A stretch of 64,000 nt of DNA from NCBI GenBank assembly GCA_902788175.1, contig CADAJF010000010.1, forward strand, positions 1 through 64,000, read 5' to 3'. Positions within the stretch are counted from its first letter, which is position 1, and every line of letters begins with the position of its first letter. A program made the position numbers and the translations under genes. Shown one piece after another: positions 27,179 to 50,833 of this stretch. The notes under the pieces are model-generated. The model worked only from the letters and a program-made list of their open reading frames with translations. It had not been told where the DNA came from and made no database searches. The stretch is from an uncultured Bacteroidia bacterium (GTDB lineage Bacteria > Bacteroidota > Bacteroidia > Bacteroidales > UBA932).

Positions 27179-29587
27179 ATGAAGCGTCCGGGATTCATTC
27201 TCTCGCTCATTATGCTTTTGAGCAGTTCGGTTGTCAGCAATGCCGCGACGCCGGGCGGGATGGCATTCCGTTCCTACGAGTCTCCAGTGCAAGATAGGAC
27301 TTCGCTGTCTTTCGGGGATAAACACGGCGAGATGTCATTCAGGGATAGCCTCTCGCTGGATTTCCTCATGAGGATCGATCCGGAGCGCGAGCCATTCGGT
27401 TCTATTTGCCATATCCTGACAGACTCCTCCAATACACTCAACCTTGTCTTGATTCACGACCGTGACAAGGAGCCGGGAATGATAGTCAATCTTGGCACCA
27501 ACATTTCCAAGCCACTATCGCTGGACCATTCCCTGAATGAGTTGAACCGGATCTCCCTTGGAATAAAGAGCGTCCGAGATTCACTTCGGTTCTACGCCAA
27601 TGGGGTTTTGCTGGCCAGTTGCCCGGCAAGTGGCCGCAAGCATACCGCCCGCATTGTTTTCGGCACATCCGACGATATCACTGAAATAGCTCCTATCGTC
27701 CTCTACGAGGTCTCATTGCGGCGCGACGGTTCGCGTGCCGATATCTGGAACTTTGAGAGCGCCTGGCAGTTCGCACAAATCGCGCGAAAGGGTCCCAGGA
27801 TGGTGGCTTCCGTCTCGAATCCGCTTTGGAAGGAAGAGCAGGATGCCAGGTGGCAGCTTGGCCCTTCTTTCCAGATATCCTTGCCCTTCCGCCTTGCCTA
27901 TGGCGATTCTTCCGCCGGTGTGACCTTCGTCAGCGCCAATGAAATCGTCCGTTTCCACCCGGAGAGGGGTGAAGCTCAGCGTTATCCGTTCCAAGATACG
28001 CTGCCGATAGAGGCCATGGGCGACGACTTCATCCAGGAGTCTGACGGCGGGTTATATATCATCGACCTTGAAGCGGCCCATCCCAGCCCCAACCGTTTCG
28101 ATTTCGAAGCCCTGCATTGGGAGCGTCAGGAGCGGCGCGAGGCTTATTCACGCAGTTTTGAGGCTGCTTTGCTGCGCAATCCCATCGATGGTTCCATTGT
28201 CCGCCTGTTCGGCTACGGCTACCATCGTTTCCTCAACGAAATGGTGCGTTGGCAGTCTGGCGAAGAGACGGTAAAAACGGCGCTCGATGGCGCCGAGCCA
28301 AGGAGGAGGGCGGTGTTCTGTGTCAGGGATTCACTTGTTTTCATTTACGGAGGAGATGGCAATGAAAGCGGCCGTCAAGACCTTCCGATACGCTTCTATC
28401 CCGAAATCCTTACATTCAACCTCAGTGATTATTCCGTCCAAAAAGTCGCTATCTCCGAGGCTGTCCCTCCGGCCTCTCCGGACTTGATTTATCACGAAGG
28501 CAGGTTCAACCTCCTTGCTTTTGACTCGGGCAATATCGTCCTTGTTGGCATCGATCCGGAAACGGGGATATGTCGGAAAAGTCCCGTTCTGGTCTCTGGC
28601 ATGACTGTTTATTGGGGCAGTAGGCTCCTGCGCGCCGGAAACTGCTGGTTTGTCTGTCTTGCAGGTGTCGCTCCAGGAGGCAACGGCCTTGTCAAATGCT
28701 TCAGTATCAAGGATCCTTTCCGTGAAGTGGCCCCAGTAGTAGAAAAACGGAGGCCTTGGTGGCCATGGTTGCTACTTTCCGCGTTGGTGCTTGGAGCGTT
28801 GGCTTTTGTCATTATGCGGCGCAAGCGTCTTGAACCGGTGTTTACGGATGAATCCGCCGACGAGTCGTCTCCCGACACGCGCCAGATCCGCCTTCTTGGC
28901 TTTTTCAAGGTATCCGACCGCAGCGGACAGGACCTTACCAAGGAGTTCTCTCCAATGATGCAGCAGGTTCTGGCGTTCCTGCTCCTGCATTGCAGTGAAG
29001 ATGGGCGGGTATCAAATGCCCAGTTGCGTGAAAACCTCTGGTTCGATAAGAGCGAAGAAAGTTTCAACAATAACAGGGCGGTTTACTTCAACCGTATCCG
29101 CGCCCAGCTGGAAAAGTTGGGATCGGTCGCCATTTCCAGCAGTGCAGGCAACTGGACTATGGAGCTTTCGGATGTCCCGTGTGATTATTACAGGGCGTTG
29201 GAGCTTGCGGAGTCCGTCCAGTCCGGTCTGGCCGACCAGTCACTTACGCGCGAATTCGTTCATCTTGCCGGCAATGGGCCGTTGCTGCCCGGAATTGAAG
29301 CCGAATGGCTCGACCGATTCAAAGCTGAATATGCTGAGAAAATGATAACGGCGCTTTCCGCCCTTTCCCAGCACCCCCTGTCCGCATCTGACAGGATTCT
29401 TCTTGGAGAGCTGATCCTTGGTTTCGATTCCCTGGACGAGGAAGCCGTGAGGATGAAATGTGGTGCTCTGATGGAAAGCAAACGCTATGGAGCGGCCCAG
29501 GACTGCTACAAAGCCTTCGTCCAGCGCTACGTACAGATGATGGGAGAGGAATTCCGCACCCCGTTCTCGGATTTCATAAAAAAGTAA
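27179..29587 (+). CDS. Transmembrane one-component regulator with SARP/OmpR-type winged helix
   Basis: An 802-residue protein. Signal peptide at 1-22; residues about 30-190 resemble a LamG/concanavalin-like beta-sandwich (FGDKHGEMSFRDSLSLDFLMR, ISLGIKSVRDSLRFYANG); about 230-510 look like a kelch or propeller sensor (GGLYIIDLEA, SLVFIYGGDGN); one membrane helix at about 526-546 (WPWLLLSALVLGALAFVIM); then a cytoplasmic winged helix at about 568-665 (QIRLLGFFKV...LREN LWFDKSEESFNNNRAVYFNRIRAQLEKLG) and a helical, BTAD/TPR-like C-terminus. This is the SARP layout placed behind a membrane sensor. It sits at the head of the PUL and is the only regulator in it, so it very likely senses the glycan product and switches the locus. 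Confidence 0.78.
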   Translation: MKRPGFILSLIMLLSSSVVSNAATPGGMAFRSYESPVQDRTSLSFGDKHGEMSFRDSLSLDFLMRIDPEREPFGSICHILTDSSNTLNLVLIHDRDKEPGMIVNLGTNISKPLSLDHSLNELNRISLGIKSVRDSLRFYANGVLLASCPASGRKHTARIVFGTSDDITEIAPIVLYEVSLRRDGSRADIWNFESAWQFAQIARKGPRMVASVSNPLWKEEQDARWQLGPSFQISLPFRLAYGDSSAGVTFVSANEIVRFHPERGEAQRYPFQDTLPIEAMGDDFIQESDGGLYIIDLEAAHPSPNRFDFEALHWERQERREAYSRSFEAALLRNPIDGSIVRLFGYGYHRFLNEMVRWQSGEETVKTALDGAEPRRRAVFCVRDSLVFIYGGDGNESGRQDLPIRFYPEILTFNLSDYSVQKVAISEAVPPASPDLIYHEGRFNLLAFDSGNIVLVGIDPETGICRKSPVLVSGMTVYWGSRLLRAGNCWFVCLAGVAPGGNGLVKCFSIKDPFREVAPVVEKRRPWWPWLLLSALVLGALAFVIMRRKRLEPVFTDESADESSPDTRQIRLLGFFKVSDRSGQDLTKEFSPMMQQVLAFLLLHCSEDGRVSNAQLRENLWFDKSEESFNNNRAVYFNRIRAQLEKLGSVAISSSAGNWTMELSDVPCDYYRALELAESVQSGLADQSLTREFVHLAGNGPLLPGIEAEWLDRFKAEYAEKMITALSALSQHPLSASDRILLGELILGFDSLDEEAVRMKCGALMESKRYGAAQDCYKAFVQRYVQMMGEEFRTPFSDFIKK

Positions 29588-29593
29588 AGATAA

Positions 29594-29642
29594 GCGTTAA
29601 CCTTTCATTAAGTCGACCTTTAATGGCCGCCTTTTATTTTTG
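29594..29642 (+). promoter_or_regulatory. PUL promoter A: phased TTAA repeats plus -7 box
   Basis: TTAA cores start at 29597, 29608 and 29620 (steps of 11 and 12 bp) and a -7 box TATTTTTG starts at 29635, 15 bp after the last core. The 38 bases from 29605 match the susC promoter (from 30593) at 32 positions with identical spacing. A likely operator for the neighbouring SARP-like regulator. Confidence 0.68.
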
Positions 29643-29656
29643 CAAATAAAAGAAAT

Positions 29657-30559
29657 ATGAAATATCCTTTGTTTTGCACAGCCGTTAGCGTACTGCTTCT
29701 GTCGTGCATTCCTTCTTCATCCGTGGAAATCCAGCCGCAGATGCCTTCTCAAAATCCCGAAAAAGAAGGCTCAGGTAGTATGGAAGATCCCGTTACTCCG
29801 CCCGCGAAGACTTTCGACCCGTCCCAGGCCGAAAAGGCCTTTGGCGTCGGAGTTCATTCCCACAATGATTACGCCCAGAAAAGGCCCTTCTGGGGTGCAT
29901 ACGAGGCCGGGGCAATATCGATGGAAGCTGATATATGGATGGTCAACCGCAAGTTATATGTAGCTCACTATAGGGAAGAGATTACGGAAGATGCCCTTAT
30001 CACCCAACTCTATCTTGACCCAATAAAGAAGGTGATGGCCGACAACGGTGGCCGCGCATATGCAGACGGGCGCCCGTTGCAGCTACTCGTTGACTTGAAA
30101 AATGGTAAGGCCGGGCTTGATAAACTCGTGGATATCATCCAGTCCGGAGGATATGCCCAGTGTTTCGACCGCGTTCACAATCCATATGCCGTGCGCTTAC
30201 TCGTCTCCGGCGACGCCGTAGAAGCAAAGGATTTCACTTCGTATCCGGATTTCGTTTTCTTCGACGGGCGCCCGGGAAGGGATTATACGGCCGGACAGCT
30301 TGCCCGCGTGCCACTTATCAGTCAGGCTAAATCGAACTACACCTCCTGGTCGGGAATCATTCTTCCGCTGCCTGAGACCGCTGCCCAAAAGATACGTGCC
30401 GACGTAGAAGCCGCCGCGAAACTTGGTTGCGGATTCCGCATATGGAGTTTCCCGGATACGGAGCTTGGATGGAAGACTGCCTTGTCGCTCGGAGTCTCAT
30501 ACATCAATTCCGACAAGCCGGCGGATGCGGTAAAATGGTTGGCCAAACAAAAAAAATAA
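29657..30559 (+). CDS. PI-PLC/GDPD-superfamily lipoprotein
   Basis: A 300-residue predicted lipoprotein (SVLLLSCIPS; Cys17). After a Pro/Ser-rich linker comes VGVHSHNDYAQKRPFWGAYEAGAISMEADIWM, the HxHNDY and ExD motifs of the PI-specific phospholipase C / glycerophosphodiester phosphodiesterase TIM barrel, then LYVAHYREE, QLLVDLKNG and FRIWSFPD. Expected chemistry: cleavage of a phosphodiester next to a sugar or inositol at the cell surface. It has its own copy of the PUL promoter and lies between the regulator and susC. Confidence 0.83.
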   Translation: MKYPLFCTAVSVLLLSCIPSSSVEIQPQMPSQNPEKEGSGSMEDPVTPPAKTFDPSQAEKAFGVGVHSHNDYAQKRPFWGAYEAGAISMEADIWMVNRKLYVAHYREEITEDALITQLYLDPIKKVMADNGGRAYADGRPLQLLVDLKNGKAGLDKLVDIIQSGGYAQCFDRVHNPYAVRLLVSGDAVEAKDFTSYPDFVFFDGRPGRDYTAGQLARVPLISQAKSNYTSWSGIILPLPETAAQKIRADVEAAAKLGCGFRIWSFPDTELGWKTALSLGVSYINSDKPADAVKWLAKQKK

Positions 30560-30581
30560 AAATTTTATATAATTCCGACTC

Positions 30582-30630
30582 TCATTAAGAATTCATTAAG
30601 GCGGCCGTTAAAGGTCGCCTTTTAATTTTG
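30582..30630 (+). promoter_or_regulatory. PUL promoter B (susC): phased TTAA repeats plus -7 box
   Basis: TCATTAAG occurs at 30582 and again at 30593, 11 bp apart; TTAA cores start at 30585, 30596 and 30608, and the -7 box TAATTTTG starts at 30623. Core and box spacing equals that of promoter A. There is no good -33 TTTG, which suits an activator-dependent promoter. GGCGGCC/GGTCGCC also forms an imperfect inverted repeat at 30600-30619. Confidence 0.7.
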
Positions 30631-30653
30631 TCCCAGCCAATAACAGTGCGTTT

Positions 30654-33600
30654 ATGAGAAATATGAAAATCCTAAAAGCAACAATCCTTCTCCTGCTGGC
30701 TTTCTTACTGGTTGTGGAGCCGGCAGCGGCCCAGCAGGCAGGCAAGCTTGTCAAGGGACGTGTTCTGGATGAGGCCGGCGCGCCGCTCCCCGGAGCGGTG
30801 GTGTTCAGCACCCGTTCCAAGACCTCCACTACGACTGATATCGATGGGCAATTTGAGATGAAGGCCCTTCCAGAAGATGTGCTTGGCTTCAGTTTCCTGG
30901 GGTTCAAGGACTATTCTGCGCACGCACGCGACGTGGATGGGAAAACGGTCACGCTGCAGACAGATTCTGAGCGTCTGGACGATGCCGTCGTCATCGGCTA
31001 CGGAGTCCGCAAGAGAGAAAACCTCACTGGCGCCGTCTCCAGCATCGGTGGCGGAAAAGAACTAAAGACCGCAACCAGTTCTTCCCTTGCCCAAGATCTG
31101 GCCGGAAAGGTAGCCGGTCTGCAGATCCGTCAGGAAAATGGTGAGCCCGGCTCCTTCGCCACCAGCATCAACATTCGTGGCTTCGGCAACCCGCTTTACG
31201 TTGTGGATGGTATCCCACAGGTGTCCGGTAACAATATTTTCCAGCGACTTGACCCCAATGACATCGAGAGCATTTCCGTCATCAAGGATGCACTTGGTGC
31301 GGTCTACGGCCGTCGTGGCGCCAACGGCGTCGTTATTGTAACGACAAAGACAGGCAGTTCCAAGCGCCCCGTCCTGTCTTTCGAAGCAGTGGCCGGTATC
31401 CAGATGCCTACCGACATGCCGACCATGAGCAATCGTAAGCAATGGACGGAACTTTACAACGAAGCCACCATCTATAATACCGGAACGCCCGCCTATACTC
31501 GCGAGCAGCTGGCCGCCGAAGCTGTCGCCCCTTCGACCGACTGGTACAATGCCGTCATTAAGCCGTTCTCGACCCAGCAGCAATATCACCTCTCGGTTGA
31601 GGGCGCCACTCAGCGCGCGAAATACTACGTCGGCGCGGGTTATGTGACCGATGAGGGCCTCCTCCGCAGTGGCGACCTCGGATACAACAAGGTCGATTTC
31701 CGTTCCAACATCAACGTTGACGTCACCGATAATCTCCACGTGGACTTCCAGCTCTCCGGTTCGTCCGACAAGAAGACAGGCACGGCAGGCGGCTTCTACG
31801 ACGTGTTTTTCGCATCCCGCACGGCCCTTCCGACGGAAAAGATCTATGCCAACGACAACACCGATTATATGGCCGTGACCTCATTCGGCCATGCCCTGGC
31901 AAAATCGATGTCCGAAATTTCCGGCTACAACAACACCGACGACCGCATTTTCAACGGATCGGCCGCCATTCGTTACGATTTCCCTTTCCTTGAAGGCCTC
32001 TATGCCAAGGTCAACTACAGCTACAACTTCCGTTACATCTCCAACAAAACTCTCAACAAGGCCTACAACCTCTATGTCTACGACGAGGCGGCAGACATTC
32101 CGTACACACCCAAGGAGATGAACGGGCCGTCTACGATCAGTAACGACTATACGACATCCGGCCTTTCCACGCTGCAAGCGACTCTGGCATACTCTCATCT
32201 TTTCGGCGGTAAACACCGGACCGAAGCCACGTTGGTGTATGAGCAGACCGGCTATCACAGCCGCTACAGCCGTCTACTTCGCGAGTATTCCTTCTATACC
32301 GGAGACCAGGTCGACCTTGCCAGCGAAAACAACATGAAAACGGGAGGTATAGAGAACGACGAGACGAGTATGTCCTATATCGGCCGTCTGTCCTATGCCT
32401 ATCGCGACCGTTACCTGGTCGATGCATCCTTCCGCTACGACGGCTCCTGCCTCTATAGCCCGCAGATGCGTTGGGGTTTCTTCCCCGTTGTTTCCGCCGG
32501 TTGGCGCGTGTCCGAAGAGAATTTCATGAAACGTCAGCGGGTCATCTCATACCTCAAGCTTCGCGCTTCCTACGGTTTGGTCGGTGAAGACAACGGCAAG
32601 CCTTTCCAGTATGTTCCCGGCTTCAGTGTGACTGGTGGCGGCGGTTACGAGTTCACCGACGGTTCATGGACTACCGGAGCGGCTTCTCCTGCGCTCGTCA
32701 ATGATCGCCTGACGTGGTTCACTTCCAGAATGGCGGATGCCGGTATCGATTTCGGTTTCCTCCGCAGCAATCTCACGTTCTCGGTCGACGTGTACAAGCG
32801 CGATCGCTCCGGACTTCTTGGCACCCGTTCCCTCTCGCTTCCTAACACCTTCGGAGCATCGCTTCCGCAGGAGAACCTCAACAGCGACCGTACTTTCGGC
32901 GTTGATTTCACGGCGGCGTGGAGCGGACACTTCGGTGACTTCTACTACAACATTACCGGCAACTTTAACTATGCCCGTTCCCAGAACCTGTATGTGGAAG
33001 AGTCCGAATTCTCAAGCACCCGGGCCAAGTGGCTTTCCGGACGGACCAACCGCTACAATGACGTCTACTGGGGCTATGTCGTCCTCGGCCAGTTCCAAAC
33101 CGAGCAGGAAATCCTCGATGCGCCCGTACAGAACGGCGCCCGTGGCAACGGCAAAATCCTCCCCGGCGACTATATCTACAAGGACATGAACGAAGACGGC
33201 ATTATCAACGGCAACGACATGGTGCCCCTGTTCTTCAGCGGATATCCGAAACTCTTCTACGGCCTGAGTCTGTCCGGTTCATGGAAGGGTCTGGATTTCT
33301 CCATGGTGTTCCACGGCTCCGGATTCAACACCATCAGGTTCCAGGAGATGTATGCTGAGGTGCTCGCCTACAACCTCAACACACCTGCTTATTTCTATGA
33401 CCGATGGCACAGGACCGACATTTATGACGAAAACAGCGAGTGGGTTCCTGGCAAATGGCCGTCGACACGTCTTATCAACGATGCGGGCTCAAATTACAAC
33501 GAGAGTTCCGTATGGCGCCGCGATGTCACCTACCTCCGCTTGAAGAACCTGACCATAGGTTACACGCTGCCACAGCGATGGACGGCCAAGGTCGGTATCA

Positions 33601-33758
33601 GCAAGGCGCGCGTCTACGTCAATGGCAACAACGTTTTCACGATCTGTGATCCGTTCGTGAAGCCTTTCGACCCTGAGAAGACTGTTGGAACCAGCAGTAT
33701 GGGGTGTAATTACCCTCTGATGCAAAGTTGGAACTTTGGTGTAAACATTTCATTCTAA
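30654..33758 (+). CDS. SusC-like TonB-dependent outer-membrane transporter
   Basis: A 1,034-residue protein. Signal peptide (MRNMKILKATILLLLAFLLVVEPAAAQ), carboxypeptidase-regulatory-like domain (VKGRVLDEAGAPLPGAVVFS, about 35-110), TonB plug (DDAVVIGYGVRKRENLTGAVSSI, NIRGFGNPLYVVDGIPQ, NGVVIVTTK), then a long beta-barrel ending in a C-terminal Phe (NFGVNISF). This is the SusC layout: it imports oligosaccharides captured by the SusD partner, driven by TonB. susD follows after 7 nt. It is the second gene with the phased-TTAA promoter. Confidence 0.95.
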   Translation: MRNMKILKATILLLLAFLLVVEPAAAQQAGKLVKGRVLDEAGAPLPGAVVFSTRSKTSTTTDIDGQFEMKALPEDVLGFSFLGFKDYSAHARDVDGKTVTLQTDSERLDDAVVIGYGVRKRENLTGAVSSIGGGKELKTATSSSLAQDLAGKVAGLQIRQENGEPGSFATSINIRGFGNPLYVVDGIPQVSGNNIFQRLDPNDIESISVIKDALGAVYGRRGANGVVIVTTKTGSSKRPVLSFEAVAGIQMPTDMPTMSNRKQWTELYNEATIYNTGTPAYTREQLAAEAVAPSTDWYNAVIKPFSTQQQYHLSVEGATQRAKYYVGAGYVTDEGLLRSGDLGYNKVDFRSNINVDVTDNLHVDFQLSGSSDKKTGTAGGFYDVFFASRTALPTEKIYANDNTDYMAVTSFGHALAKSMSEISGYNNTDDRIFNGSAAIRYDFPFLEGLYAKVNYSYNFRYISNKTLNKAYNLYVYDEAADIPYTPKEMNGPSTISNDYTTSGLSTLQATLAYSHLFGGKHRTEATLVYEQTGYHSRYSRLLREYSFYTGDQVDLASENNMKTGGIENDETSMSYIGRLSYAYRDRYLVDASFRYDGSCLYSPQMRWGFFPVVSAGWRVSEENFMKRQRVISYLKLRASYGLVGEDNGKPFQYVPGFSVTGGGGYEFTDGSWTTGAASPALVNDRLTWFTSRMADAGIDFGFLRSNLTFSVDVYKRDRSGLLGTRSLSLPNTFGASLPQENLNSDRTFGVDFTAAWSGHFGDFYYNITGNFNYARSQNLYVEESEFSSTRAKWLSGRTNRYNDVYWGYVVLGQFQTEQEILDAPVQNGARGNGKILPGDYIYKDMNEDGIINGNDMVPLFFSGYPKLFYGLSLSGSWKGLDFSMVFHGSGFNTIRFQEMYAEVLAYNLNTPAYFYDRWHRTDIYDENSEWVPGKWPSTRLINDAGSNYNESSVWRRDVTYLRLKNLTIGYTLPQRWTAKVGISKARVYVNGNNVFTICDPFVKPFDPEKTVGTSSMGCNYPLMQSWNFGVNISF

Positions 33759-33765
33759 TGGCCTT

Positions 33766-36344: not shown

Positions 36345-36366
36345 TAACACTTAATTTCATCCGATC

Positions 36367-39349: not shown

Positions 39350-40863
39350 GAAGAAGGATATATTATTATTTCGGGCTGATCTGCCTGATGCTTTATAATT
39401 GTTCCTGCAAGCCCGTGAAACTGACTCCGGACTTGCCGAAAGAGACAACCGGAGAGCAGATGAATGAAGTTACATTTCCGCTCCACAAGGACGGGGAGCC
39501 TTATGATACCTACCGCGGACTCGTCATGGCAGGCTATCAAGGTTGGTTCGGTACGCCAGGTGATGGCTCTCCCCTGACTTCAGGTGGTGCCTGGTACCAT
39601 TATCAGCTCAATGGACAGTTCGGCCCGGGTGTCCTTCGCAATTCCATCGATTTCTGGCCCGACCTCAGCGAATATGAAAAGAAATATGAAGTCGGGAGTA
39701 CGGGGAAGAGCGCAGTATTCAAGCTTCCCGACGGCTCCGATGCCTCCGTGTTCAGTTCATACGACGAGGAGACGGTCATGCTTCATTTCAAGTGGATGCA
39801 GGAATACGGACTTGACGGAGTATGGATGCAGCGTTTCGTAAGCGAAATCCGCACGGCAAGTCACAAAGACCATTTCGACAAGGTCCTCCGCAACGCCATG
39901 AAAGCCTCTAACAAATACCAGAGGGCCATTGCCGTCATGTACGACATGAGTAGTTGGACCACTGCCGAAGGACTTGAGCCTATCGTGGCAGATGCGGCCG
40001 CTCTTATGGAAGAATACAAGCTCAAGGACCGTTCCGTGCAGAAATACTATCTTCATGAAAACGGAAAGCCGATGCTCGCGCTTTGGGGCGTCGGGCTGTC
40101 GGGCAACAACCATCCGCGTCCTTCCGTCGTGAAGCCTCTGATGGAGAAGTTGCAGGAGCAGGGCTGGAGCATATTCCTAGGCGTCCCGGGCTACTGGCGC
40201 GACGGTACTGCCGATTGCGTCTCTGGCAATGAGCATAAGATCCTGCTCGATCTGATCAAGGCCAGCTCCGGGTTCTTTCCGTGGATGGCCGGGCGCTACG
40301 ACTATTCTTCATACACCTCCGAACAGTGGCAGAACCGTTTGAAAAACGATATCGAAGCGGCCAAGGGCTATTCGACCAAAGACCATACGGTGACATATGC
40401 CATTGATATTTTCCCGGGCTTCAGCGATCGCAACATGTACCCCAATACGTACAAAGGCAACCCGGACCCGACCAGGACAGGATTCCGCTACGGCGGTCAA
40501 TTTTACTGGAATCAGTTCTACTATGGAATAAAGGCTGGCGCCGAGGCCGTCTATATCGGCATGTTCGACGAACTGGACGAGGGTACTGCCATCTTCAAGC
40601 AACTCCAGGTGAGCGACGTTCCGTCTAACGTCTATGCCGGCGCTGATTATTGGGTCAATTTCACTGCCTCCGGCGGTTATTCCATTTCTGTGACCAAGCC
40701 CTCCGGTAATTTTGTATGGAGCGAAAAGGCCAGTGACCTGGATGTGACCTTCCAGGGCATCGACGACGGCAAGGGTACCGACTGGTATCTGTGGCTGACC
40801 GGTCAGGCCCGTAAAATGTTCCGGGGCGAAGCCCCCTTGACGCAAAGATTGCCTTCGCGATGA
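39346..40863 (+). CDS. GH71/GH99-like glycoside hydrolase lipoprotein
   Basis: A 505-residue lipoprotein (LICLMLYNCSC). RGLVMAGYQGWFGTPGDG opens the barrel, then TVMLHFKWMQEYGLDGVWMQRF, AVMYDMSS, ALWGVGLSGN and the C-terminal AVYIGMFDELDEGTAIFK. This set is that of the GH71/99-like proteins common in Bacteroidetes; GH99 enzymes are endo-acting on alpha-mannosides, GH71 on alpha-1,3-glucan, and this branch is not well characterised. A C-terminal beta module (NFVWSEKASDLDVTFQ) follows. It overlaps its neighbours by 4 nt on both sides, so it is tightly coupled. Confidence 0.78.
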   Translation: MRRRIYYYFGLICLMLYNCSCKPVKLTPDLPKETTGEQMNEVTFPLHKDGEPYDTYRGLVMAGYQGWFGTPGDGSPLTSGGAWYHYQLNGQFGPGVLRNSIDFWPDLSEYEKKYEVGSTGKSAVFKLPDGSDASVFSSYDEETVMLHFKWMQEYGLDGVWMQRFVSEIRTASHKDHFDKVLRNAMKASNKYQRAIAVMYDMSSWTTAEGLEPIVADAAALMEEYKLKDRSVQKYYLHENGKPMLALWGVGLSGNNHPRPSVVKPLMEKLQEQGWSIFLGVPGYWRDGTADCVSGNEHKILLDLIKASSGFFPWMAGRYDYSSYTSEQWQNRLKNDIEAAKGYSTKDHTVTYAIDIFPGFSDRNMYPNTYKGNPDPTRTGFRYGGQFYWNQFYYGIKAGAEAVYIGMFDELDEGTAIFKQLQVSDVPSNVYAGADYWVNFTASGGYSISVTKPSGNFVWSEKASDLDVTFQGIDDGKGTDWYLWLTGQARKMFRGEAPLTQRLPSR

Positions 40864-41939
40864 AAAAATCCGTTCTTCTCTTTCTTGCCTTCCTGCTCCT
40901 GGCCTCGTCCTGCCGGCGGGGGGACAATGACCCCCGCCTGATTGTCATTTCCTTCGACGGTTTGCGCTGGTCCGAAGTTTTCGGCGGCGCCGACTCCGCG
41001 ATGCTGGCCCGTCCGGATTATGTGAAAGACAGACATGCCGCGGAGAAGTATTGGCGCCAGACGCCTGCCGAGCGGCGGGAGGCCCTTCTTCCCTTCATCT
41101 GGAGTTATGTCCCCGGGCATGGCTATCTGGTCGGCAACCGCTGGCTGGGCAGCCGGATGGACATGGCCAACAGGATGTGGTTCTCCTATCCGGGCTACAA
41201 CGAGATGTTCTGCGGTTTTCCCGACGACGAAAGGATTACCAGCAACAAGGCCGAGATGAACGCCAATACCAGCGTCTTCGAAGTGGCCAACCGCGATCCG
41301 CGCTATGCCGGCCGCGTTGCGGTGTACGGTTCCTGGACGATTATCAAATATGCCCTCAACTGCGAGCGGGGTGCTTTCCCCGCCAGTACGGGATATGACA
41401 AAAGCGTCGCCAGGCATCCGTCCGAGGCGATCCGCCTGGTGGACGAGATGCTGGAAGGCATGCCTGTCGTATGGCCGAGGGACCGCTACGATGCCTTTAC
41501 CTATGCCTATGCGAAAGAGACGCTCAGGAGCGACCATCCCAAGGTGATGTATATCTCTTTCTGCGAGACGGATGCATGGCCGCACGAAAAGCGCTATGAC
41601 CGCTATCTGGATGCGGCCCGGAAGACGGATACCTTTATCCGGAACATCGTGGAGACCTGTGAGTCCGATCCTTTCTACAGAGGGAAGACCACATACATCC
41701 TCCTGACCGACCACGGCCGGGGCAGCGGGGATGATTTCAAGGACCACGGTTCGGGAGCGGCCGGCTCCGGCGAACTCTTCTTCGCCGCGTTCGGCAAGGG
41801 GATTCCCGCCCTCGGCGAGGTCGAAAATACGCCTGATTATAAAGGAATGCAGGTTGCCGCCACCATTTCCGAGATCCTTGGTCTGGATTTTGTTCCTGAT
41901 AACGGTGTCAAACAGGACGCAATCCACCCCGAACAATGA
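40860..41939 (+). CDS. Alkaline-phosphatase-superfamily lipoprotein, copy 1
   Basis: A 359-residue lipoprotein (LAFLLLASSCRRGDND). Metal motifs of the alkaline phosphatase/NPP fold: VISFDGLRW (Asp33), a likely Ser nucleophile in WFSYPGYNE (about 109), ETDAWPHEKRYD, LTDHGRG and DHGSG near the end. Members hydrolyse phosphomonoesters or phosphodiesters, including NPP- and phosphoethanolamine-linked substrates. It is about half identical by eye to the product of 42964-43995, so the pair arose by duplication. It overlaps both neighbours by 4 nt. Confidence 0.78.
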   Translation: MKKSVLLFLAFLLLASSCRRGDNDPRLIVISFDGLRWSEVFGGADSAMLARPDYVKDRHAAEKYWRQTPAERREALLPFIWSYVPGHGYLVGNRWLGSRMDMANRMWFSYPGYNEMFCGFPDDERITSNKAEMNANTSVFEVANRDPRYAGRVAVYGSWTIIKYALNCERGAFPASTGYDKSVARHPSEAIRLVDEMLEGMPVVWPRDRYDAFTYAYAKETLRSDHPKVMYISFCETDAWPHEKRYDRYLDAARKTDTFIRNIVETCESDPFYRGKTTYILLTDHGRGSGDDFKDHGSGAAGSGELFFAAFGKGIPALGEVENTPDYKGMQVAATISEILGLDFVPDNGVKQDAIHPEQ

Positions 41940-42946
41940 AAGGAAAGGCAATTCTGGCATTTCTGCTGCTCAGCCAATTCGTTTTTGCGCAGCAAAGTCA
42001 TTTACCCCTGCAATATTGGAATGACGTTCCCCGTTACATGGCTGTGCAGGACAGCCTCCTGCTCCTTGCCATCGACAAGGCGATGGACGCCCGCCCTCCG
42101 GTCGTGTCCCATGGGAAGCAGGATGCGGCCCGCCAACTGATTCTGTGCAGCCTGGATGCGTTCCTCCACACGCCCCGCCCGGATACGACGGCGGCTTTCC
42201 GGGACTTTGTCGACAGCCGGATGGGCAAGGTCCTGCAGGACTTGGAGCGCCCCCTGCGCGGGAAAGTCCGCATCTACAAGATTTACAACGACGGATTCAT
42301 CGTCCGGACCAGAAAGGCGACCGTCGCCGTCGATCTCAACGGACGTGAGGGCCGCTTTGTCCCGGCCGCCCGTCTCCGGGCGCTGAGCGCGCACTGCGAC
42401 GCCCTGCTGGTGACGCACCGGCATCCCGACCATCTGGACAGGATCGTCGTCGAGGCCTTCCTGGAGGCAGGAAAGCCGGTCTGTATGCCGGAGGATGCCT
42501 GGGTGGACGACAGCCGGATTCTCCACCTCGACGGCGGAGTGCATCCGCTTGCCGGGGTACAGGTCCGTGTGCTGCCCGGACATCAGGATGAAACGCCCAC
42601 ACGGGCCATCCGCAACAATATCTACCAACTGACGTTTCCCGGCGGTTTTACGGTCACGCATACCGGGGATCAGGCCCATCAGGCCGATCTGGATTGGATC
42701 GGCCGCCTGTCCGGAACCCTCCCTCCCAGCGATGTGCTGCTGATGAACGGATGGACCCCCTCAATGGAACAGTTCGTCTCCGCCTTCGCTCCGCGCCTGA
42801 TCCTTTCCGGCCATGAAAACGAAATGGGCCATTCGACCGGGCACAGGGAGGCTTTCTGGCTGAGCGACTATAAATTGCGCCAAGTCATCCGCCCGGACTG
42901 CCCCTTCTCCGTCCTGGGCTGGGGCGAATGGATCGACTGCCGCTGA
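41936..42946 (+). CDS. Secreted metallo-beta-lactamase-fold hydrolase
   Basis: A 336-residue protein with a signal peptide (MKGKAILAFLLLSQFVFAQ). The MBL-fold metal motif is LLVTHRHPDHLDR (HxHxDH), followed by VRVLPGHQDETP, TVTHTGDQAHQAD and RLILSGHENEMGHS. The family covers many hydrolases, so the substrate is open; a phosphodiester, lactone or ester bond in the glycan is possible. The N-terminal 100 residues are helical and unassigned. It lies between the duplicated phosphatase genes. Confidence 0.75.
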   Translation: MKGKAILAFLLLSQFVFAQQSHLPLQYWNDVPRYMAVQDSLLLLAIDKAMDARPPVVSHGKQDAARQLILCSLDAFLHTPRPDTTAAFRDFVDSRMGKVLQDLERPLRGKVRIYKIYNDGFIVRTRKATVAVDLNGREGRFVPAARLRALSAHCDALLVTHRHPDHLDRIVVEAFLEAGKPVCMPEDAWVDDSRILHLDGGVHPLAGVQVRVLPGHQDETPTRAIRNNIYQLTFPGGFTVTHTGDQAHQADLDWIGRLSGTLPPSDVLLMNGWTPSMEQFVSAFAPRLILSGHENEMGHSTGHREAFWLSDYKLRQVIRPDCPFSVLGWGEWIDCR

Positions 42947-42963
42947 TCAATCACTGACAACCT

Positions 42964-43995
42964 ATGAAAAGAATCATTTTTCCCGTCCTGCTTTCTCTCC
43001 TGCTCGCCGTGGTGTCCTGCGAAAAGAAGGACAACGCCCCCCGGCTGGTCATCATCACTTTCGACGGCCTGCGCTGGGTCGAACTGTTCGGCGGGGCGGA
43101 CTCCACGCTGACCGACCGGACCGAGCCGCGTGACTCCATTTTCCCCTTTATCTGGTCCTATGTGCCGGAACATGGTTACCTGCTCGGAAACCGTCTTCTC
43201 GGCAGCAAAGTGGACATGAGCAACCGCTTCTGGTTCTCTTATCCCGGATATAGCGAGATTTTCTGCGGCTATGCCGATGACGGGCGGATCACCAGCAATG
43301 ATGCGGTCCCGAATCCCAATACAAGCGTCCTGGAGGTGGCCGGCCGCGATCCCCGCTATGCCGGGCGTGTCATGGTGTATGCTTCCTGGAGGCAGGTTAA
43401 GCATGCCGTCGGCTGCGAAAGGGGCGTCATCCCCGGCAGTTCGGCCTACGATCCGGGCCTGTCCGACACCGAATTTACCCGGCTGCTGGATAAGATGCAG
43501 GAAGGGATGCCGCGCATCTGGGGCGGCGAGCGCTTCGATGCCTTTACCTATGCCTATGCGCTGGAATCCCTGCGCAAGGACCATCCCAAAGTCCTGTACG
43601 TCTCCCTCGGCGAGACGGATGAATGGGCGCATGCCAGGCGTTATGACCGTTATCTGTCCTCGGCTCGGGCGACGGACGCTTTCATCCGCGGCATCGTGGA
43701 AACCTGCGAGGCGGATCCCTTCTACAAAGGCAGGACCACTTATCTGGTGACGACGGACCATGGACGGGGATATGGAAACGATTTCCCGCTTCACGGTGAC
43801 GGCTCTCCCGGATCCGGAGAGACGTTTTTCCTGGCCTTCGGCCGGGGGATTCCCGTGCTGGGCGAGGTTTCGGACGCCCCGGACTACAAGAACCGGCAGA
43901 TTGCCGCCACCATCGCCGAAATCCTGGACATTGACTTTGTCCCGGACAACGGTATCCGGCAGGAGGCCATCCATCCTGAAAGACCCATCGAATAA
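42964..43995 (+). CDS. Alkaline-phosphatase-superfamily lipoprotein, copy 2
   Basis: A 343-residue lipoprotein (LSLLLAVVSCEKKDN) closely similar to copy 1 throughout: VIITFDGLRWVELFGGAD, WFSYPGYSEIFCG, ETDEWAHARRYDRYL, TTDHGRG and LHGDGSPGSGETF. Copy 1 has about 16 extra residues after the first motif. Both keep all expected metal ligands, so both are probably active, perhaps on different phosphoesters. The GH92 gene follows after 9 nt. Confidence 0.78.
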   Translation: MKRIIFPVLLSLLLAVVSCEKKDNAPRLVIITFDGLRWVELFGGADSTLTDRTEPRDSIFPFIWSYVPEHGYLLGNRLLGSKVDMSNRFWFSYPGYSEIFCGYADDGRITSNDAVPNPNTSVLEVAGRDPRYAGRVMVYASWRQVKHAVGCERGVIPGSSAYDPGLSDTEFTRLLDKMQEGMPRIWGGERFDAFTYAYALESLRKDHPKVLYVSLGETDEWAHARRYDRYLSSARATDAFIRGIVETCEADPFYKGRTTYLVTTDHGRGYGNDFPLHGDGSPGSGETFFLAFGRGIPVLGEVSDAPDYKNRQIAATIAEILDIDFVPDNGIRQEAIHPERPIE

Positions 43996-44004
43996 TAATA
44001 CCGC

Positions 44005-46221
44005 ATGCGAAAATTCTTTCTCTTCTCCATTCTTTTGGCCGCGGTGACGGCCTGTACCGGGGTTGTCCCGCAGGAAAACATTGTCAATCAAGTTGATCCG
44101 CGTATTGGAAGCGGTGGTCACGGACATGTGTTTGTCGGGGCGGGCGTGCCCTTCGGCATGGTCCAACTCGGGCCGACCAGCATTCCGCAGGCCTGGGACT
44201 GGTGCTCCGGCTACCACAGTTCCGACTCGACCGTCATCGGCTTCAGCCACACTCACTTGAGCGGCACCGGTATCGGCGACCTGTGCGATATAAACGTCAT
44301 GCCTGTCGTGGGGAAGGGCCTGGTCTACGCCCGTGGCACCGAAACCGAGCCCGGCAGCGGTCTGTGGTCATATGCCGACCGTAGCAGGGAAGTCGTCGAG
44401 CCGGGATATTACAGCGTACCCCTGCTCCGATACGGGGTTACGGCGGAGCTTACAGCCACCGAACGCGTTGGTATGCACCGATATACGTTCCCGCAGAGCG
44501 ACGAGTCTGCGCTGGTTTTCGACCTCGACAACGGTGGCAATTTCGAAAGCCCGTTCGATACAGGGATCGAGGTGCTGGACAGCTGCACTGTCCGCGGATG
44601 GCGCCATTCCAGCGGCTGGGCGAAGAACCAGAAGCTGTTTTTCTATGCAAAATTCTCAAAGCCATTTATTTACACCGCTGTTCCGTCGGGACGTGCCACC
44701 GGCTTGACGGGCTACGGTCGCTTCTCCTTCCGTACCTCCGAAGGGGAGCAGGTCCTCCTTAAGGTCGCCCTTTCGTCCACCGGTGTGGCTGGGGCGCAGA
44801 AGGCGATGGAGGCGGAACTTCCCGGCTGGGATTTCGATGCCACCCGCGCCGCTGCCCGTGACAGTTGGAACAAGGCTCTGTCGGTCGTGAAGATAGAGTC
44901 GTCCGACACGGAGGTCCGCAAGATATTCTACACGGCGCTGTACCATACGATGATAGCTCCGTCGCTGTTCTGCGATGTCGACGGGACGTACCGTGGTGCC
45001 GACGATGCGGTCCATCCCGGCCCGGGCTACCGCACGGCTACAACCTTCTCGCTTTGGGATACTTACAGGGCCGCCCAGCCCCTCTACAGCATCATCCTGC
45101 CCGATCGCCGGGCCGATTTCATCAACACGATGCTGGCGATTTTCGACGAGCAGGGCAAGCTTCCCGTCTGGCACCTGATGGCCAATGAGACCGACTGCAT
45201 GGTTGGAAATCCCGGTGTCATCGCCGTGGCGGAGGCTATCGTCAAGGGCTATCCCGGTTTCGACCGCGAGCGGGCCTACCGTGCCTGCAAGGCTTCCGTG
45301 ATGCTCGATGAGCGCGGGCAGGACCTTCGCAAGCAGTATGGCTACATCCCCTGCGACCTTTGTCCGGAGGCATGTGCCAAGGATATGGAATATGCCATCG
45401 CAGATGCTGCCGTAGCGGAAGCCGCGCGTGTCCTCGGCCACGATGAAGATGCCGCCTTCTTTACGGAACGCAGCCACAGCTGGCGCAATTTCTTCGATCC
45501 GGAGACCGGTTTCGTGCGCGGACGCACCTCCGACGGGGGATGGCGCACGCCGTTCAACCCCTTCTACGCGCCCCACAGGGCCAATGACTATTGCGAGGGC
45601 AACGCCTGGCAATACACCTGGCTTGCGCCTCACGACCTGCAGGGCCTGATCGATTGTTTCGGCAGCCGCGAGGCTATGATATCACGTCTGGATTCGCTGT
45701 TCACCGCCTCATCTGCGCTTGGAGCCGAGGCTTCTCCTGACATGTCAGGCCTCATCGGCCAGTATGTCCATGGAAACGAGCCCAGCCACCATATCGTCTA
45801 TCTCTACACCATGGCAGGCGAGCCCTGGAAGACGGCGGACAAGGTGCGCCAGATCCTTTCGGAGCAGTACAGTGCAGGCCCTGACGGCCTTTCAGGCAAT
45901 GAGGATGTGGGGCAGATGTCGGCATGGTACATCCTTTCGGCACTTGGCTTCTATCAGGTTGAACCGGCCTCCACCCGCTACTGGTTCGGCTCGCCCATCG
46001 TCGACAAGGCCACCATCGCCGTCGGCGGCGGCAAGACCTTCACGGTCGAGGCCCTGGGCAACAGCCCGGCCAACCGCTACATTCAGGAAGTCCGGCTCAA
46101 CGGCAAGCCCTGGGACCGCCCGTATATCGATTTCGAAGATATCCGCTCCGGAGCAAGCCTGACTTTCCGGATGGGTCCTGAACCGGCCCTCTGGTACGAA
46201 TGGGACAAGTCTTTCCAATAA
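44005..46221 (+). CDS. GH92 exo-alpha-mannosidase lipoprotein
   Basis: A 738-residue lipoprotein (SILLAAVTACTGVV). It has the GH92 set: VDPRIGSGGHGHVFVGAGVPFGMVQLGP at the N-terminus, FSHTHLSGTG, the (alpha/alpha)6 part with LPVWHLMANETDCMVGN, and the catalytic C-terminal GNEPSHHIVYLY and GLSGNEDVGQMSAWYI. GH92 enzymes are calcium-dependent exo-alpha-mannosidases, mostly alpha-1,2 but with several linkages known. It points to alpha-mannose in the target glycan. Linkage cannot be read here. Confidence 0.94.
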   Translation: MRKFFLFSILLAAVTACTGVVPQENIVNQVDPRIGSGGHGHVFVGAGVPFGMVQLGPTSIPQAWDWCSGYHSSDSTVIGFSHTHLSGTGIGDLCDINVMPVVGKGLVYARGTETEPGSGLWSYADRSREVVEPGYYSVPLLRYGVTAELTATERVGMHRYTFPQSDESALVFDLDNGGNFESPFDTGIEVLDSCTVRGWRHSSGWAKNQKLFFYAKFSKPFIYTAVPSGRATGLTGYGRFSFRTSEGEQVLLKVALSSTGVAGAQKAMEAELPGWDFDATRAAARDSWNKALSVVKIESSDTEVRKIFYTALYHTMIAPSLFCDVDGTYRGADDAVHPGPGYRTATTFSLWDTYRAAQPLYSIILPDRRADFINTMLAIFDEQGKLPVWHLMANETDCMVGNPGVIAVAEAIVKGYPGFDRERAYRACKASVMLDERGQDLRKQYGYIPCDLCPEACAKDMEYAIADAAVAEAARVLGHDEDAAFFTERSHSWRNFFDPETGFVRGRTSDGGWRTPFNPFYAPHRANDYCEGNAWQYTWLAPHDLQGLIDCFGSREAMISRLDSLFTASSALGAEASPDMSGLIGQYVHGNEPSHHIVYLYTMAGEPWKTADKVRQILSEQYSAGPDGLSGNEDVGQMSAWYILSALGFYQVEPASTRYWFGSPIVDKATIAVGGGKTFTVEALGNSPANRYIQEVRLNGKPWDRPYIDFEDIRSGASLTFRMGPEPALWYEWDKSFQ

Positions 46222-46232
46222 CGAAAGCCGCC

Positions 46233-47462
46233 ATGAAAAGAGTTTTGACCTGTGCCTTGCTCCTGTGTCTGGCGCTGCTCTGCCAGGCAAAGGGGAAGAA
46301 AGCCGTTTTCATCATTATCGACGGCGTCCCCGCCGACATGGTGGAGCGTCTTGACCTGCCCGTCCTGCGGGAAATCGCCGCACAGGGGGCCTACGCCCGC
46401 ATCTTTGTCGGCGGCACCCGCGGGGATTATGACGAAACGCCGACCATTTCCGCGGTGGGTTATACCGACCTGCTGACGGCAACCTGGGTCAACAAGCACA
46501 ATGTCTGGGGCAACCACGATCTTCACCCGAACTACAATTACTGGACGATCTTCCGGATTGCCAGGGAGCAGAAGAAGTCCTTTACCACCGGTCTGTTTTC
46601 CAGTTGGACCGACAACCGTACGGTCCTGGTCGGCGAGGGGAAGCCGGAGACGGGTAACCTGCGGCTGGACTATGTCCGGGACGGCTATGACCTGGACCGG
46701 GAGGCTTTCCCCCGGAAGCCGGACGACCTGCATATCTTTGATATCGACGAGCATGTATCCCGGGAGGCGGCTTCGTGCATCCGGACGGATGCCCCGGACT
46801 TGAGCTGGGTCTATCTCTGGTACACCGACGATGCCGGGCATCACTATGGAAACGGCGACGTTTTCGACCATGCGGTTGAAATGGCGGACAAGCAGATCGG
46901 CCGCGTCTGGGAAGCCGTCAAGTACCGCCGGGACCATTTTGGCGAGGACTGGATGGTGGTTGTGACCACGGACCAAGGCCGTACCGACAACGGCCTCTAC
47001 CATGGCGCCCAGAGTGACCGCGAGCGGACGACCTGGGTGGTTACCAACCGGAAGGTGAACGAGCGGCTCCTCGGCGGAGGCGGCGCCATTGTGGACATCG
47101 CGCCGTCCATCTGCCGCTTCATGGGATTTGAAATACCCCGCGACCGGCGCTGGGAGCAGGATGGGACGCCCTTCATCGGGAAAGTCGACATCCTGGATCT
47201 GACAACGGAACCGGCCGGAGACAAGCAGGTGACTCTCCACTGGAAAAGCGTCCGGAACCAGGCCCGGGTGCGGGTCTGGGCTTCGCTCAGCAATCATTTC
47301 AAGGAGGGCGGAAAAGACGTGTGGGTTCCCGTCGGCATCGTCCGGGCCGGAGCGGAGTCTTTCACGGTCGATCTGTCCCGTCTCCCGGAATCATCTTTCT
47401 GCAAATTCGTCCTCGAGGCTCCGCACAACCACATCGGTCGCTGGTACCTTCCGGCACAGTAG
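46233..47462 (+). CDS. Nucleotide-pyrophosphatase/phosphodiesterase-like secreted enzyme
   Basis: A 409-residue protein with signal peptide MKRVLTCALLLCLALLCQA, then the NPP/type I phosphodiesterase fold: VFIIIDGVPADM (metal Asp), DETPTISAVGYTDLL (Thr/Ser nucleophile), WYTDDAGHHYG (Asp and His), TTDQGRTD, and GLYHGAQ (His). The fifth motif is usually S/T-D-H-G; here the His is Gln, so one metal site may be altered. A C-terminal beta domain (KQVTLHWKSVRNQARVRVW) ends the protein. The ATG at 46233 is preferred over 46200 since it opens the signal peptide. Last gene of the PUL. Confidence 0.78.
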   Translation: MKRVLTCALLLCLALLCQAKGKKAVFIIIDGVPADMVERLDLPVLREIAAQGAYARIFVGGTRGDYDETPTISAVGYTDLLTATWVNKHNVWGNHDLHPNYNYWTIFRIAREQKKSFTTGLFSSWTDNRTVLVGEGKPETGNLRLDYVRDGYDLDREAFPRKPDDLHIFDIDEHVSREAASCIRTDAPDLSWVYLWYTDDAGHHYGNGDVFDHAVEMADKQIGRVWEAVKYRRDHFGEDWMVVVTTDQGRTDNGLYHGAQSDRERTTWVVTNRKVNERLLGGGGAIVDIAPSICRFMGFEIPRDRRWEQDGTPFIGKVDILDLTTEPAGDKQVTLHWKSVRNQARVRVWASLSNHFKEGGKDVWVPVGIVRAGAESFTVDLSRLPESSFCKFVLEAPHNHIGRWYLPAQ

Positions 47463-47990: not shown

Positions 47991-48034
47991 GAAGCGGAAT
48001 TATCTGAAAAATCAGATAGTTCCGCTTTCGTTTT
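47990..48034 (+). terminator. Terminator hairpin behind the diverged tRNA end
   Basis: CGAAGCGGAATTATCTGA pairs with TCAGATAGTTCCGCTTTCG (one mismatch, one bulge) around AAAA, and TTTTG follows. Likely the original terminator of the tRNA-Arg gene. Confidence 0.8.
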
Positions 48035-50820: not shown

Positions 50821-50833
50821 AAGCTTATCATGA

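What the first reader, a model, noticed from the sequence alone, without database searches (positions are those of the whole stretch)
27179..47462. PUL that pairs mannosidases with a PI-PLC-like enzyme and three phosphatase-fold enzymes
Seen: in one co-directional run lie a PI-PLC/GDPD-like lipoprotein, SusC/D, DUF3823, an SGNH acetylesterase, a GH71/99-like hydrolase, two paralogous alkaline-phosphatase-fold lipoproteins, an MBL-fold enzyme, a GH92 mannosidase and an NPP-like phosphodiesterase. Known: GH92 and GH99 enzymes act on alpha-mannosides; PI-PLC/GDPD and NPP/alkaline-phosphatase folds act on phosphoesters. Inference: the target is a phosphorylated, acetylated mannose glycan. Two candidates fit: yeast phosphomannan, and GPI-type glycans, where PI-PLC would free the glycan, phosphatase-fold enzymes would remove phosphoethanolamine and GH92 would trim mannose. 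I know of no described PUL with this set.
Basis: partly seen in the sequence, partly recalled or inferred. Interest (0 to 1): 0.78.

Follow-up and report, generated by a model that had tools for sequence, protein, structure and literature searches.

The report
Mannan-eating locus with phosphate-cap removers
A gene cluster of an uncultured Bacteroidales bacterium puts two mannose-chain-cutting enzyme families in one tightly packed run with several enzymes of phosphate-ester-cutting families, and it likely lets the bacterium strip phosphate-type caps from mannose-rich glycans, probably those of other microbes, before eating the sugar.

Summary
In detail: 27179-47462 is a co-directional SusC/D locus with a GH92, a GH99-like enzyme, a SASA esterase, three alkaline-phosphatase-superfamily (AP) enzymes, an MBL enzyme and a GDPD-type lipoprotein. 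New here: the first gene looks like a membrane regulator (Kelch-TM-SARP type); a 46-bp block is repeated before the GDPD gene and before susC, so both are probably one regulon; a histidine phosphatase follows, probably as a separate unit.

The 'PI-PLC' is GDPD-type, and the sister species' otherwise complete locus lacks it; nothing points to GPI in particular. A phosphate-substituted alpha-mannoside is supported: the GH92 is nearest to alpha-1,3/1,4 enzymes; kin fuse GH92 to the GH99-like domain and GDPD-type domains to alkaline phosphatase, GH97 and EEP domains; elsewhere the GH99-like gene often sits with GH92 or sulfatases, and here phosphoesterase-type enzymes stand in the sulfatases' place. 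In marine kin the same AP enzyme and the GDPD protein are tied to phosphonate catabolism (PbfA). Closest known: sulfated-mannan PULs and Flavobacterium 'PUS' loci; this looks like a hybrid of the two. New variant of a known kind. No activity was tested.

The parts
27179..29587 (+). probable membrane-anchored regulator P0001 (Kelch-like extracellular part, one TM, cytosolic SARP-like winged helix + BTAD)
   Evidence: No usable Pfam hit itself. Its own-genome paralogue (25%) hits, in this order, Kelch PF24681 (37.1 vs cut-off 50 bits), Trans_reg_C (16.1 vs 26.2) and BTAD (21.4 vs 22.1), all under the curated cut-offs. Sister orthologue 67%, directly before susC. TM read by eye.
29597..29642 (+). 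putative operator/promoter block, copy 1 (before the GDPD gene)
   Evidence: 46-bp direct repeat, 80% identical to copy 2; a 39-bp consensus built from the two copies finds these 2 in the window and nothing in 100 shuffles with up to 3 mismatches; ends in TAnnTTTG (recalled Bacteroidetes -7 motif)
29657..30559 (+). GDPD-type lipoprotein P0002 (AIM6-like, recalled; lipobox by eye)
   Evidence: GDPD_2 22.9 bits (below cut-off 27); 50 of 63 homologues carry PF03009 and/or PF13653 by my count; profile hits in PDB at E<=1 are 8 of 8 GDPD-type, best E 0.0011; AF2 pLDDT 86.6; Foldseek best = GDPD-like phospholipases D and GDPDs, with two glucanases among the first nine
30585..30630 (+). putative operator/promoter block, copy 2 (before susC)
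   Evidence: a like block precedes susC in sister G014 (by eye; the exact pattern does not match it)
30654..33758 (+). SusC
   Evidence: TIGR04056 819.8 bits
33766..35652 (+). SusD
   Evidence: PF07980, PF14322
35652..36344 (+). DUF3823 protein
   Evidence: PF12866, PF18003
36367..37872 (+). DUF5018-like lipoprotein, probably surface glycan binding
   Evidence: PF16410 27.7 bits, below cut-off 38.2; role inferred
37772..39349 (+). SASA/SGNH esterase (true start probably near 37856)
   Evidence: PF03629 81 bits; 497 aa in the sister
39346..40863 (+). GH99-like (GH71/99-like) hydrolase P0004
   Evidence: profile E 1.4e-6 to 4acy/4acz; E409 and E412 invariant in 30 close rows; the FDE..EGT motif is in 8 of 10 GH99-like proteins looked at, not in the two of L150
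40860..41939 (+). AP-superfamily phosphoesterase P0005 (NPPa), lipoprotein by eye
   Evidence: PF01663 21.3 bits (below cut-off 23); AF2 pLDDT 95; Foldseek top Xac NPP, TM about 0.5, 15% id
41936..42946 (+). metallo-beta-lactamase-fold hydrolase P0006
   Evidence: PF13483 31.4 bits; HxHxDH motif by eye
42964..43995 (+). AP-superfamily phosphoesterase P0007 (NPPb), lipoprotein by eye
   Evidence: 61% to P0005; PF01676 20.9 bits, below cut-off 24.3
44005..46221 (+). GH92 alpha-mannosidase
   Evidence: 573 bits; nearest solved: 7zgm, BT3130, BT3965; acid Glu in DYCEGNAWQYTW
46200..47462 (+). Phosphodiest-family enzyme P0008 (NPPc)
   Evidence: PF01663 48.9 bits; DQG where the sister has DHG
47991..48028 (+). 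terminator-like hairpin before the histidine phosphatase gene
   Evidence: 17 pairs, the next longest has 9; but 22 such sites in the region against 19.4 expected
48090..49385 (+). histidine phosphatase branch 2 (glucose-1-/inositol-phosphatase-like), probably a separate unit
   Evidence: PF00328 57 bits, NF007553 284 vs cut-off 425; a relative lies near a P0005-type gene in 7 of 77 loci, in 5 of them fused to a GH2-like part

Best explanation
This is a polysaccharide utilization locus that likely degrades an alpha-mannoside carrying phosphate-type caps (phosphomonoester, phosphodiester or phosphonate ester), probably from eukaryotic microbes. Proposed order, all inferred from families and context: the surface esterase (SASA) removes acyl groups; the two lipoprotein AP-fold enzymes (P0005, P0007) remove phospho-caps that would block the mannan chain, the job sulfatases do in sulfated-mannan loci; the GH99-like enzyme then cuts internally; SusC/D imports the pieces; in the periplasm GH92 trims mannose (alpha-1,3/1,4 type) and P0008 with the MBL enzyme finishes remaining phosphoesters; the GDPD-type lipoprotein cleaves glycerol- or head-group phosphodiesters and is an accessory. 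Shown by sequence: the genes, their order, the conserved site residues, the repeated 46-bp block before the GDPD gene and susC, and glycosidase-phosphoesterase fusions in kin. Inferred: that P0001 is the regulator and acts through that block.
For: Operon packing. GH92 lacks the His584/Glu585 pair of the alpha-1,2 enzyme BT3990 and is nearest to alpha-1,3/1,4 enzymes (passages of PMC5930347 and PMC9522356). GH92::GH99-like fusion in genus mate G012. Of ten GH99-like loci fetched from six genomes outside the genus (L144-L153), 3 have GH92 and 6 (four genomes) have sulfatases; here NPP-like enzymes stand in that place, as in the sulfatase/GH195/GH92 mannan PUL (passages of PMC13063451). Fusions in kin: GDPD-type::alkaline phosphatase next to GH92 in G003, G005, G017, G019 and G033 and near it in G012 (domains shown on L072 and L082), GH97::GDPD and EEP::GDPD, GH2-like::histidine phosphatase in 5 loci. 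P0002 and P0005 types co-occur: both in 6 of 37 genus genomes (expected 1.5, p 8e-5; one weak P0005 hit, G020 at E 2.5e-4, was left out) and in 19 of 199 Flavobacteriaceae (expected 3.5, p 4e-15). Two other loci of this genome, one with GH76, GH125 and GH92, one with GH125 and GH92, point to an alpha-mannose eater.
Against: No activity is known for any of these AP enzymes; P0005 is about 15% identical to the nearest solved NPP. The P0005 family is not tied to mannosidases in general: GH92 lies near it in 11 of 77 loci. The full gene set was met in two of the genomes examined (G000, G014). P0008 has Gln at a metal-ligand position where the sister has His. The sister's copy has no GDPD gene. The two GH99-like proteins of L150, one of the three GH92-bearing loci, lack the catalytic motif. 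Four of the ten GH99-like loci (L146, L147, L152, L153) showed no GH92 and were not scanned for sulfatases. Co-occurrence tests ignore shared ancestry.
Confidence: 0.5

Rival explanations
1. GPI-type glycans or lipophospho(no)glycans are the specific target: the GDPD-type protein would free the glycan, AP enzymes would remove ethanolamine phosphate or aminoethylphosphonate, GH92 would trim mannose.
For: The GPI core has an alpha-1,4 mannose and can carry ethanolamine phosphate (passages of PMC3964302); the nearest GH92s include the alpha-1,4 enzyme BT3965. Aminoethylphosphonate is described on a Trypanosoma cruzi GPI anchor, with evidence for Euglena oligomannosides (passages of PMC6994554). 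In marine kin P0005-type genes lie 1.6-1.7 kb from pbfA in 7 of the 9 genomes with both. A G012 protein resembles PI-PLC-X weakly (E 0.043, 13.9 vs cut-off 23.1 bits).
Against: No PI-PLC family member found in the locus; the sister locus lacks the GDPD gene; no hexosaminidase or inositol gene recognised in the locus; PbfA over cut-off in 0 of 61 relatives and PhnX in 0 of 37 genus genomes.
Confidence: 0.12
2. A phosphate-scavenging system (PUS) that happens to carry mannosidases: phosphorus, not sugar, is the prize.
For: PUSII of F. johnsoniae has PusCD and PhoA1 with Pfam pf00245+pf13653, the architecture of the GDPD-type::ALP fusion of kin; a low-Pi-induced putative APase there (Fjoh_2225) is pf01676.
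Against: PUSI/II are described as without the CAZy enzymes of usual PULs; here GH92, GH99-like and an esterase are inside the operon; the ruminant gut is phosphate-rich (recalled).
Confidence: 0.13
3. An ordinary N-glycan or fungal mannan locus in which the AP-fold enzymes act on something minor or on imported products.
For: Nearest GH92 7zgm acts on plant N-glycans; GH99-like proteins are common (6913 found).
Against: No GH76, GH125, PNGase or GH18 family hit in the locus; three AP-superfamily enzymes in one operon seem many for that (not quantified).
Confidence: 0.15

Closest known systems
Phosphate utilisation systems (PUS I/II) of Flavobacterium johnsoniae, PMC8115612 (section 16 and passages seen)
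   Same: SusC/D pair with phosphoesterases; PUSII PhoA1 joins GDPD_2 and alkaline phosphatase domains, as fusion proteins of this genus and of marine kin do; PUS clusters also hold phosphonate-degrading enzymes
   Different: no CAZymes in PUSI/II; FecR/ECF regulators and low-Pi induction there, a Kelch-TM-SARP-like protein here; that paper did not examine gut anaerobes
Sulfated alpha-1,3-mannan PUL of Polaribacter sp. and O. pacifica (Sulf1, GH195, GH92, Sulf2), PMC13063451 (passages seen)
   Same: AP-superfamily cap remover + GH99-related endo-enzyme + GH92; the cap must go before the chain is cut
   Different: sulfatases there, NPP-like enzymes here; whether P0004 is GH195 was not tested (no GH195 sequence at hand)
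Bacteroides alpha-mannan PULs (MAN-PUL1-3; recalled, paper not held)
   Same: SusC/D, GH92, GH99, a phosphatase (recalled)
   Different: GH76 and GH125 are absent from this locus; in this genome GH125 was seen in two other loci and GH76 in one of them

Membership tests
Polysaccharide utilization locus | adjacent SusC/SusD pair with CAZymes in one run | tested here: met
Polysaccharide utilization locus | induction by the target glycan | not testable with these tools
   no expression data
GH92 | both Pfam domains and catalytic acid Glu | tested here: met
GH99 | profile match and the two catalytic Glu | tested here: inconclusive
   A3 profile E 1.4e-6 to 4acy/4acz over its C-terminal 85 positions, E409/E412 aligned; P0004 itself has no Pfam hit; GH195 alternative untested
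Bacterial PI-PLC (PLC-X) | PF00388 match | tested here: not met
   no PF00388 hit for P0002 at E<=0.001; a PI-PLC, 5fyp, only at rank 13 in Foldseek
GDPD | PF03009/PF13653 and His/Glu sites | tested here: inconclusive
   P0002 22.9 vs 27 bits; most homologues carry the domains; H67, H69, E90, H104 invariant in 50 rows
NPP / Phosphodiest (PF01663) | profile over cut-off and two-metal site | tested here: inconclusive
   P0008 over cut-off but with Gln at one ligand; P0005 just below cut-off, P0007 matched only PF01676 (below cut-off), both with all site residues
S1 sulfatase | PF00884 match | tested here: not met
   no PF00884 hit at E<=0.001 among the locus proteins
Phosphate utilisation system (PUS) | SusC/D with phosphoesterases | tested here: met
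Phosphate utilisation system (PUS) | absence of CAZymes | tested here: not met
   GH92 and GH99-like in the operon
Phosphate utilisation system (PUS) | induction by phosphate depletion | not testable with these tools
   no expression data
Bacteroides yeast-mannan PUL | GH76 endo-mannanase (recalled) | tested here: not met
   no PF03663 hit in the locus; one at G000:C1
SARP regulator (P0001) | Trans_reg_C + BTAD | tested here: inconclusive
   only the paralogue's C-terminal part shows both, under the cut-offs (16.1 vs 26.2 and 21.4 vs 22.1 bits); a PDB profile search of three C-terminal parts gave no SARP, only weak hits incl. response-regulator DNA-binding domains at E 0.27 and above

The most novel reading that the evidence does not exclude
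The locus eats zwitterion-capped mannoglycans (phosphoethanolamine or aminoethylphosphonate on mannose, free or on GPI-like anchors) of rumen ciliates and fungi, and the P0005 family with the GDPD-type partner are the first enzymes that cut such caps off glycans, feeding released aminophosphonate to PbfA in marine kin: a whole PUL class in which phospho(no)diesterases replace sulfatases.
Probability: 0.2. Interest if true: 0.85.

Novelty: new variant of a known kind. Interest (0 to 1): 0.6.

Why it matters
Phosphodiester and phosphonate caps on glycans are described for many protists, fungi and invertebrates; a review passage seen here says that the routes that add aminoethylphosphonate are unknown, and a bacterial enzyme set that takes such caps off was not seen in the listings of my searches. 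A PUL that pairs cap removers with mannosidases would show how gut bacteria reach microbial-eukaryote glycans and would give enzymes for phosphoglycan analysis. It also joins two known locus types, sugar PULs and organophosphorus PUS.

Tried and rejected
PI-PLC reading of 29657-30559: rejected. Inositol catabolism downstream (IolM-like hit, 64.6 vs 450 bits): rejected; 49552-60450 is a rhamnose-type operon. Aminophosphonate catabolism in the window's own genus: PbfA over cut-off in 0 of 61 relatives, PhnX in 1 of 61 (G046, outside the genus), so not claimed for this organism. The histidine phosphatase as an operon member: doubtful (627-bp gap, hairpin, no homologue downstream in G014). Mannose-1-phosphate 'uncapping' GH92 (CcMan5 type, acid Glu replaced; recalled): not supported, the acid Glu is present. 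A motif pattern for that acid matched 4 of 9 GH92s tried, the window's among them; the five misses (both of G012, one of C2, L144, L151) were not looked into. Viral contigs held no relative by the patterns used. The neighbourhood scripts picked longest ORFs and so called antisense ORFs as genes in places, in G014 above all; counts use ORFs with homology to the window genes or clusters. Cluster c11 mixed GH2-like and histidine phosphatase proteins until one search showed that 5 of the 7 histidine phosphatase ORFs are long fusions. The promoter scan (sigma-70 consensus) was at chance (9 vs 10.4), not used. The regulator reading was seen by eye first; P0001 itself gives no usable domain hit. Sulfatase genes beside GH99-like genes were chosen by eye; of 10 picks Pfam gave 8 sulfatases, 1 sulfatase C-terminal part and 1 metallophosphatase. 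L132 and L133 (GH99-like loci of G058 and G060) showed no GH92 and were not looked at for sulfatases. Loci around P0005 homologues are 4-21 kb long, so neighbour counts are lower bounds.

Full report
Observation. The run 27179-47462 is as described, with corrections. Genes 30654-47462 are almost gap-free. Pfam/NCBIfam scans place SusC, SusD, DUF3823, SASA, GH92, MBL and a Phosphodiest enzyme. P0004 has no Pfam hit, but many listed homologues carry Glyco_hydro_99, and a 30-row profile hits Bacteroides GH99 structures (organisms recalled) with the two catalytic Glu aligned to E409 and E412. P0005/P0007 score just under the Pfam thresholds, but the seven AP-superfamily site residues are invariant in 44 sequences, and the model (pLDDT 95) has an AP fold whose listed solved relatives (Xac NPP, sulfatases, phosphoethanolamine transferases) are 8-15% identical: in effect a family of its own. 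3431 homologues were found; of the 120 listed, 89 by my count have a C-terminal PA14 domain, which P0005 and P0007 lack.

The 'PI-PLC'. P0002 matches GDPD, not PI-PLC: profile hits in PDB are GDPD-type in 8 of 8, though weak (best E 0.0011), 50 of 63 homologues carry GDPD domains by my count, and the model's nearest folds are GDPD-like phospholipases D and GDPDs, with a PI-PLC at rank 13. In kin a P0002-type domain is fused to alkaline phosphatase, the domain pair called PhoA1 in PUSII of F. johnsoniae (section 16 and passages of PMC8115612). The sister species G014/L014 has the locus from regulator to P0008 at 67-99% protein identity but no GDPD gene, and no room for one between regulator and susC. 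It is thus an accessory. Yet a 46-bp block upstream of it is repeated upstream of susC (80% identity, 988 bp apart; a pattern built from the two finds nothing in 100 shuffles), and a like block precedes susC in G014 (by eye); the gene was therefore probably recruited into the locus's regulon.

Regulator. P0001 (27179-29587) is directly upstream in both species. Its paralogue in the same genome (G000:C1:58214-60670) hits Kelch, then Trans_reg_C and BTAD, all a little or well under the curated cut-offs, and sits beside a GH76/GH125/GH92 SusCD locus. So a Kelch-TM-SARP-like membrane protein probably serves two mannan loci here. P0001-like proteins were met in 4 of 37 genomes searched. One paper search listed nothing that looked like a description of such PUL regulators (8 of 11 papers listed).

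Mannose. The GH92 is nearest to 7zgm (alpha-1,3), BT3130 (alpha-1,3) and BT3965 (alpha-1,4) (passages of PMC9522356 and PMC5930347). At the positions of BT3990 His584/Glu585, two of the three residues held to confer alpha-1,2 specificity, it has Glu/Ala (alignment; numbering offset worked out by hand from the catalytic Glu; the third, Trp88, was not judged). G012, a genus mate, has a GH92::GH99-like fusion in a SusCD locus with a second GH92, the GDPD-type::ALP fusion, an NPP with PA14, GH97::GDPD, EEP and metallophosphatase genes. Of 198 genomes of the order, 9 (own included) have the GH99-like family at E<=1e-60. Of ten loci fetched from six of these genomes (L144-L153), 3 have GH92 and 6 have sulfatases; the other four were not scanned for sulfatases, and L132 and L133 showed no GH92. 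The mix of sulfatase, GH99-like and GH92 is the pattern of the sulfated-mannan PUL, in which a sulfatase must act before a GH99-related endo-enzyme (GH195), followed by GH92 (passages of PMC13063451). In this genus the same chassis carries phosphoesterase-type AP enzymes. This swap is the main argument for phosphate-type caps on an alpha-mannan.

Phospho-coupling in kin. Among 77 loci around P0005 homologues, SusC is found in 20, GH92 in 11, the GDPD-type protein in 9, a histidine phosphatase in 7 (5 of these fused to a GH2-like part), a PbfA-cluster protein in 5, and GH99-like in 1 (L014). 27 of the 77 titles name a ruminant or the rumen by my count; others are marine Flavobacteriia. At genome level P0005-type and P0002-type genes co-occur in the genus (6 with both, of 7 and 8, n = 37, p 8e-5; the weak G020 hit was dropped) and in Flavobacteriaceae (19 with both, of 24 and 29, n = 199, p 4e-15); shared ancestry is not corrected for. 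They lie within 16.2 kb of each other in 7 of the 19. Of 11 marine genomes reached through the loci, 8 have the P0002 type.

Phosphonate link. PbfA, the lyase of (R)-1-hydroxy-2-aminoethylphosphonate (714 bits vs cut-off 525 in L082; role from passages of PMC10590968), occurs over cut-off in 12 of 199 Flavobacteriaceae; 9 of these have the P0005 type and 11 the P0002 type. In 7 of the 9 the P0005-type gene is 1.6-1.7 kb from pbfA. So in marine kin these enzymes probably release aminophosphonates from something larger. The window's genus has no PbfA or PhnX over cut-off, so here the cap may be phosphate-based, or removed and not used. Phosphoethanolamine on mannose (Penicillium, Trichomonas), aminoethylphosphonate on a T. 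cruzi GPI anchor and evidence for it on Euglena oligomannosides are described (passages of PMC6994554); aminoethylphosphonic acid was used as a marker of rumen protozoa, which has been questioned because bacteria and feed hold it too (passage of PMC4659874).

Limits. All functions are inferred. The host of the window's MAG is not told; ruminant origin is inferred from kin. P0008 may be impaired (DQG for DHG). GPI cannot be told from phosphorylated N-glycan or phosphomannan by these data.

Noticed in passing
window 27179-29587; G000:C1:58214-60670 (L154/L155): Two paralogous Kelch-TM-SARP-like membrane proteins, each beside a SusCD mannan locus; a regulator type for PULs that I did not see described (one search).
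   Followed up: partly
window 49552-60450, minus strand: Rhamnose-type operon (RhaT, RhaA, RhaB) that also holds a Zn-dehydrogenase, an aldolase/short-chain dehydrogenase fusion, a fused alpha-beta 2-oxoacid dehydrogenase E1 and an E2: perhaps an unusual rhamnose pathway.
   Followed up: no
L014 against window 30654-47462: Uneven divergence between sister loci: P0005, MBL, P0007 and P0008 96-99% identical, SASA 73%, GH99-like 77%, SusC 88%, which suggests recombination of the phosphatase block.
   Followed up: no
L030, L032, L034, L035, L036: A GH2-like protein (by homology) fused to a histidine acid phosphatase in ORFs of 1558-1622 codons, next to P0005-type genes.
   Followed up: partly
L123 (G012:C1:21147-23924), L127:11503-13230: GH97::GDPD and EEP::GDPD fusion proteins.
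   Followed up: partly
window 46200-47462: Metal-ligand His replaced by Gln (TTDQG) in P0008; the sister has TTDHG.
   Followed up: no
window 24609-26055, minus strand: AbiEii-like nucleotidyltransferase (67.5 bits) with a weak AbiEi-like neighbour (15.6 vs 25 bits): a possible type IV toxin-antitoxin pair just upstream of the locus.
   Followed up: no
G046:C100 and C241: The one relative of 61 with PhnX over cut-off also has a P0002-type gene.
   Followed up: no
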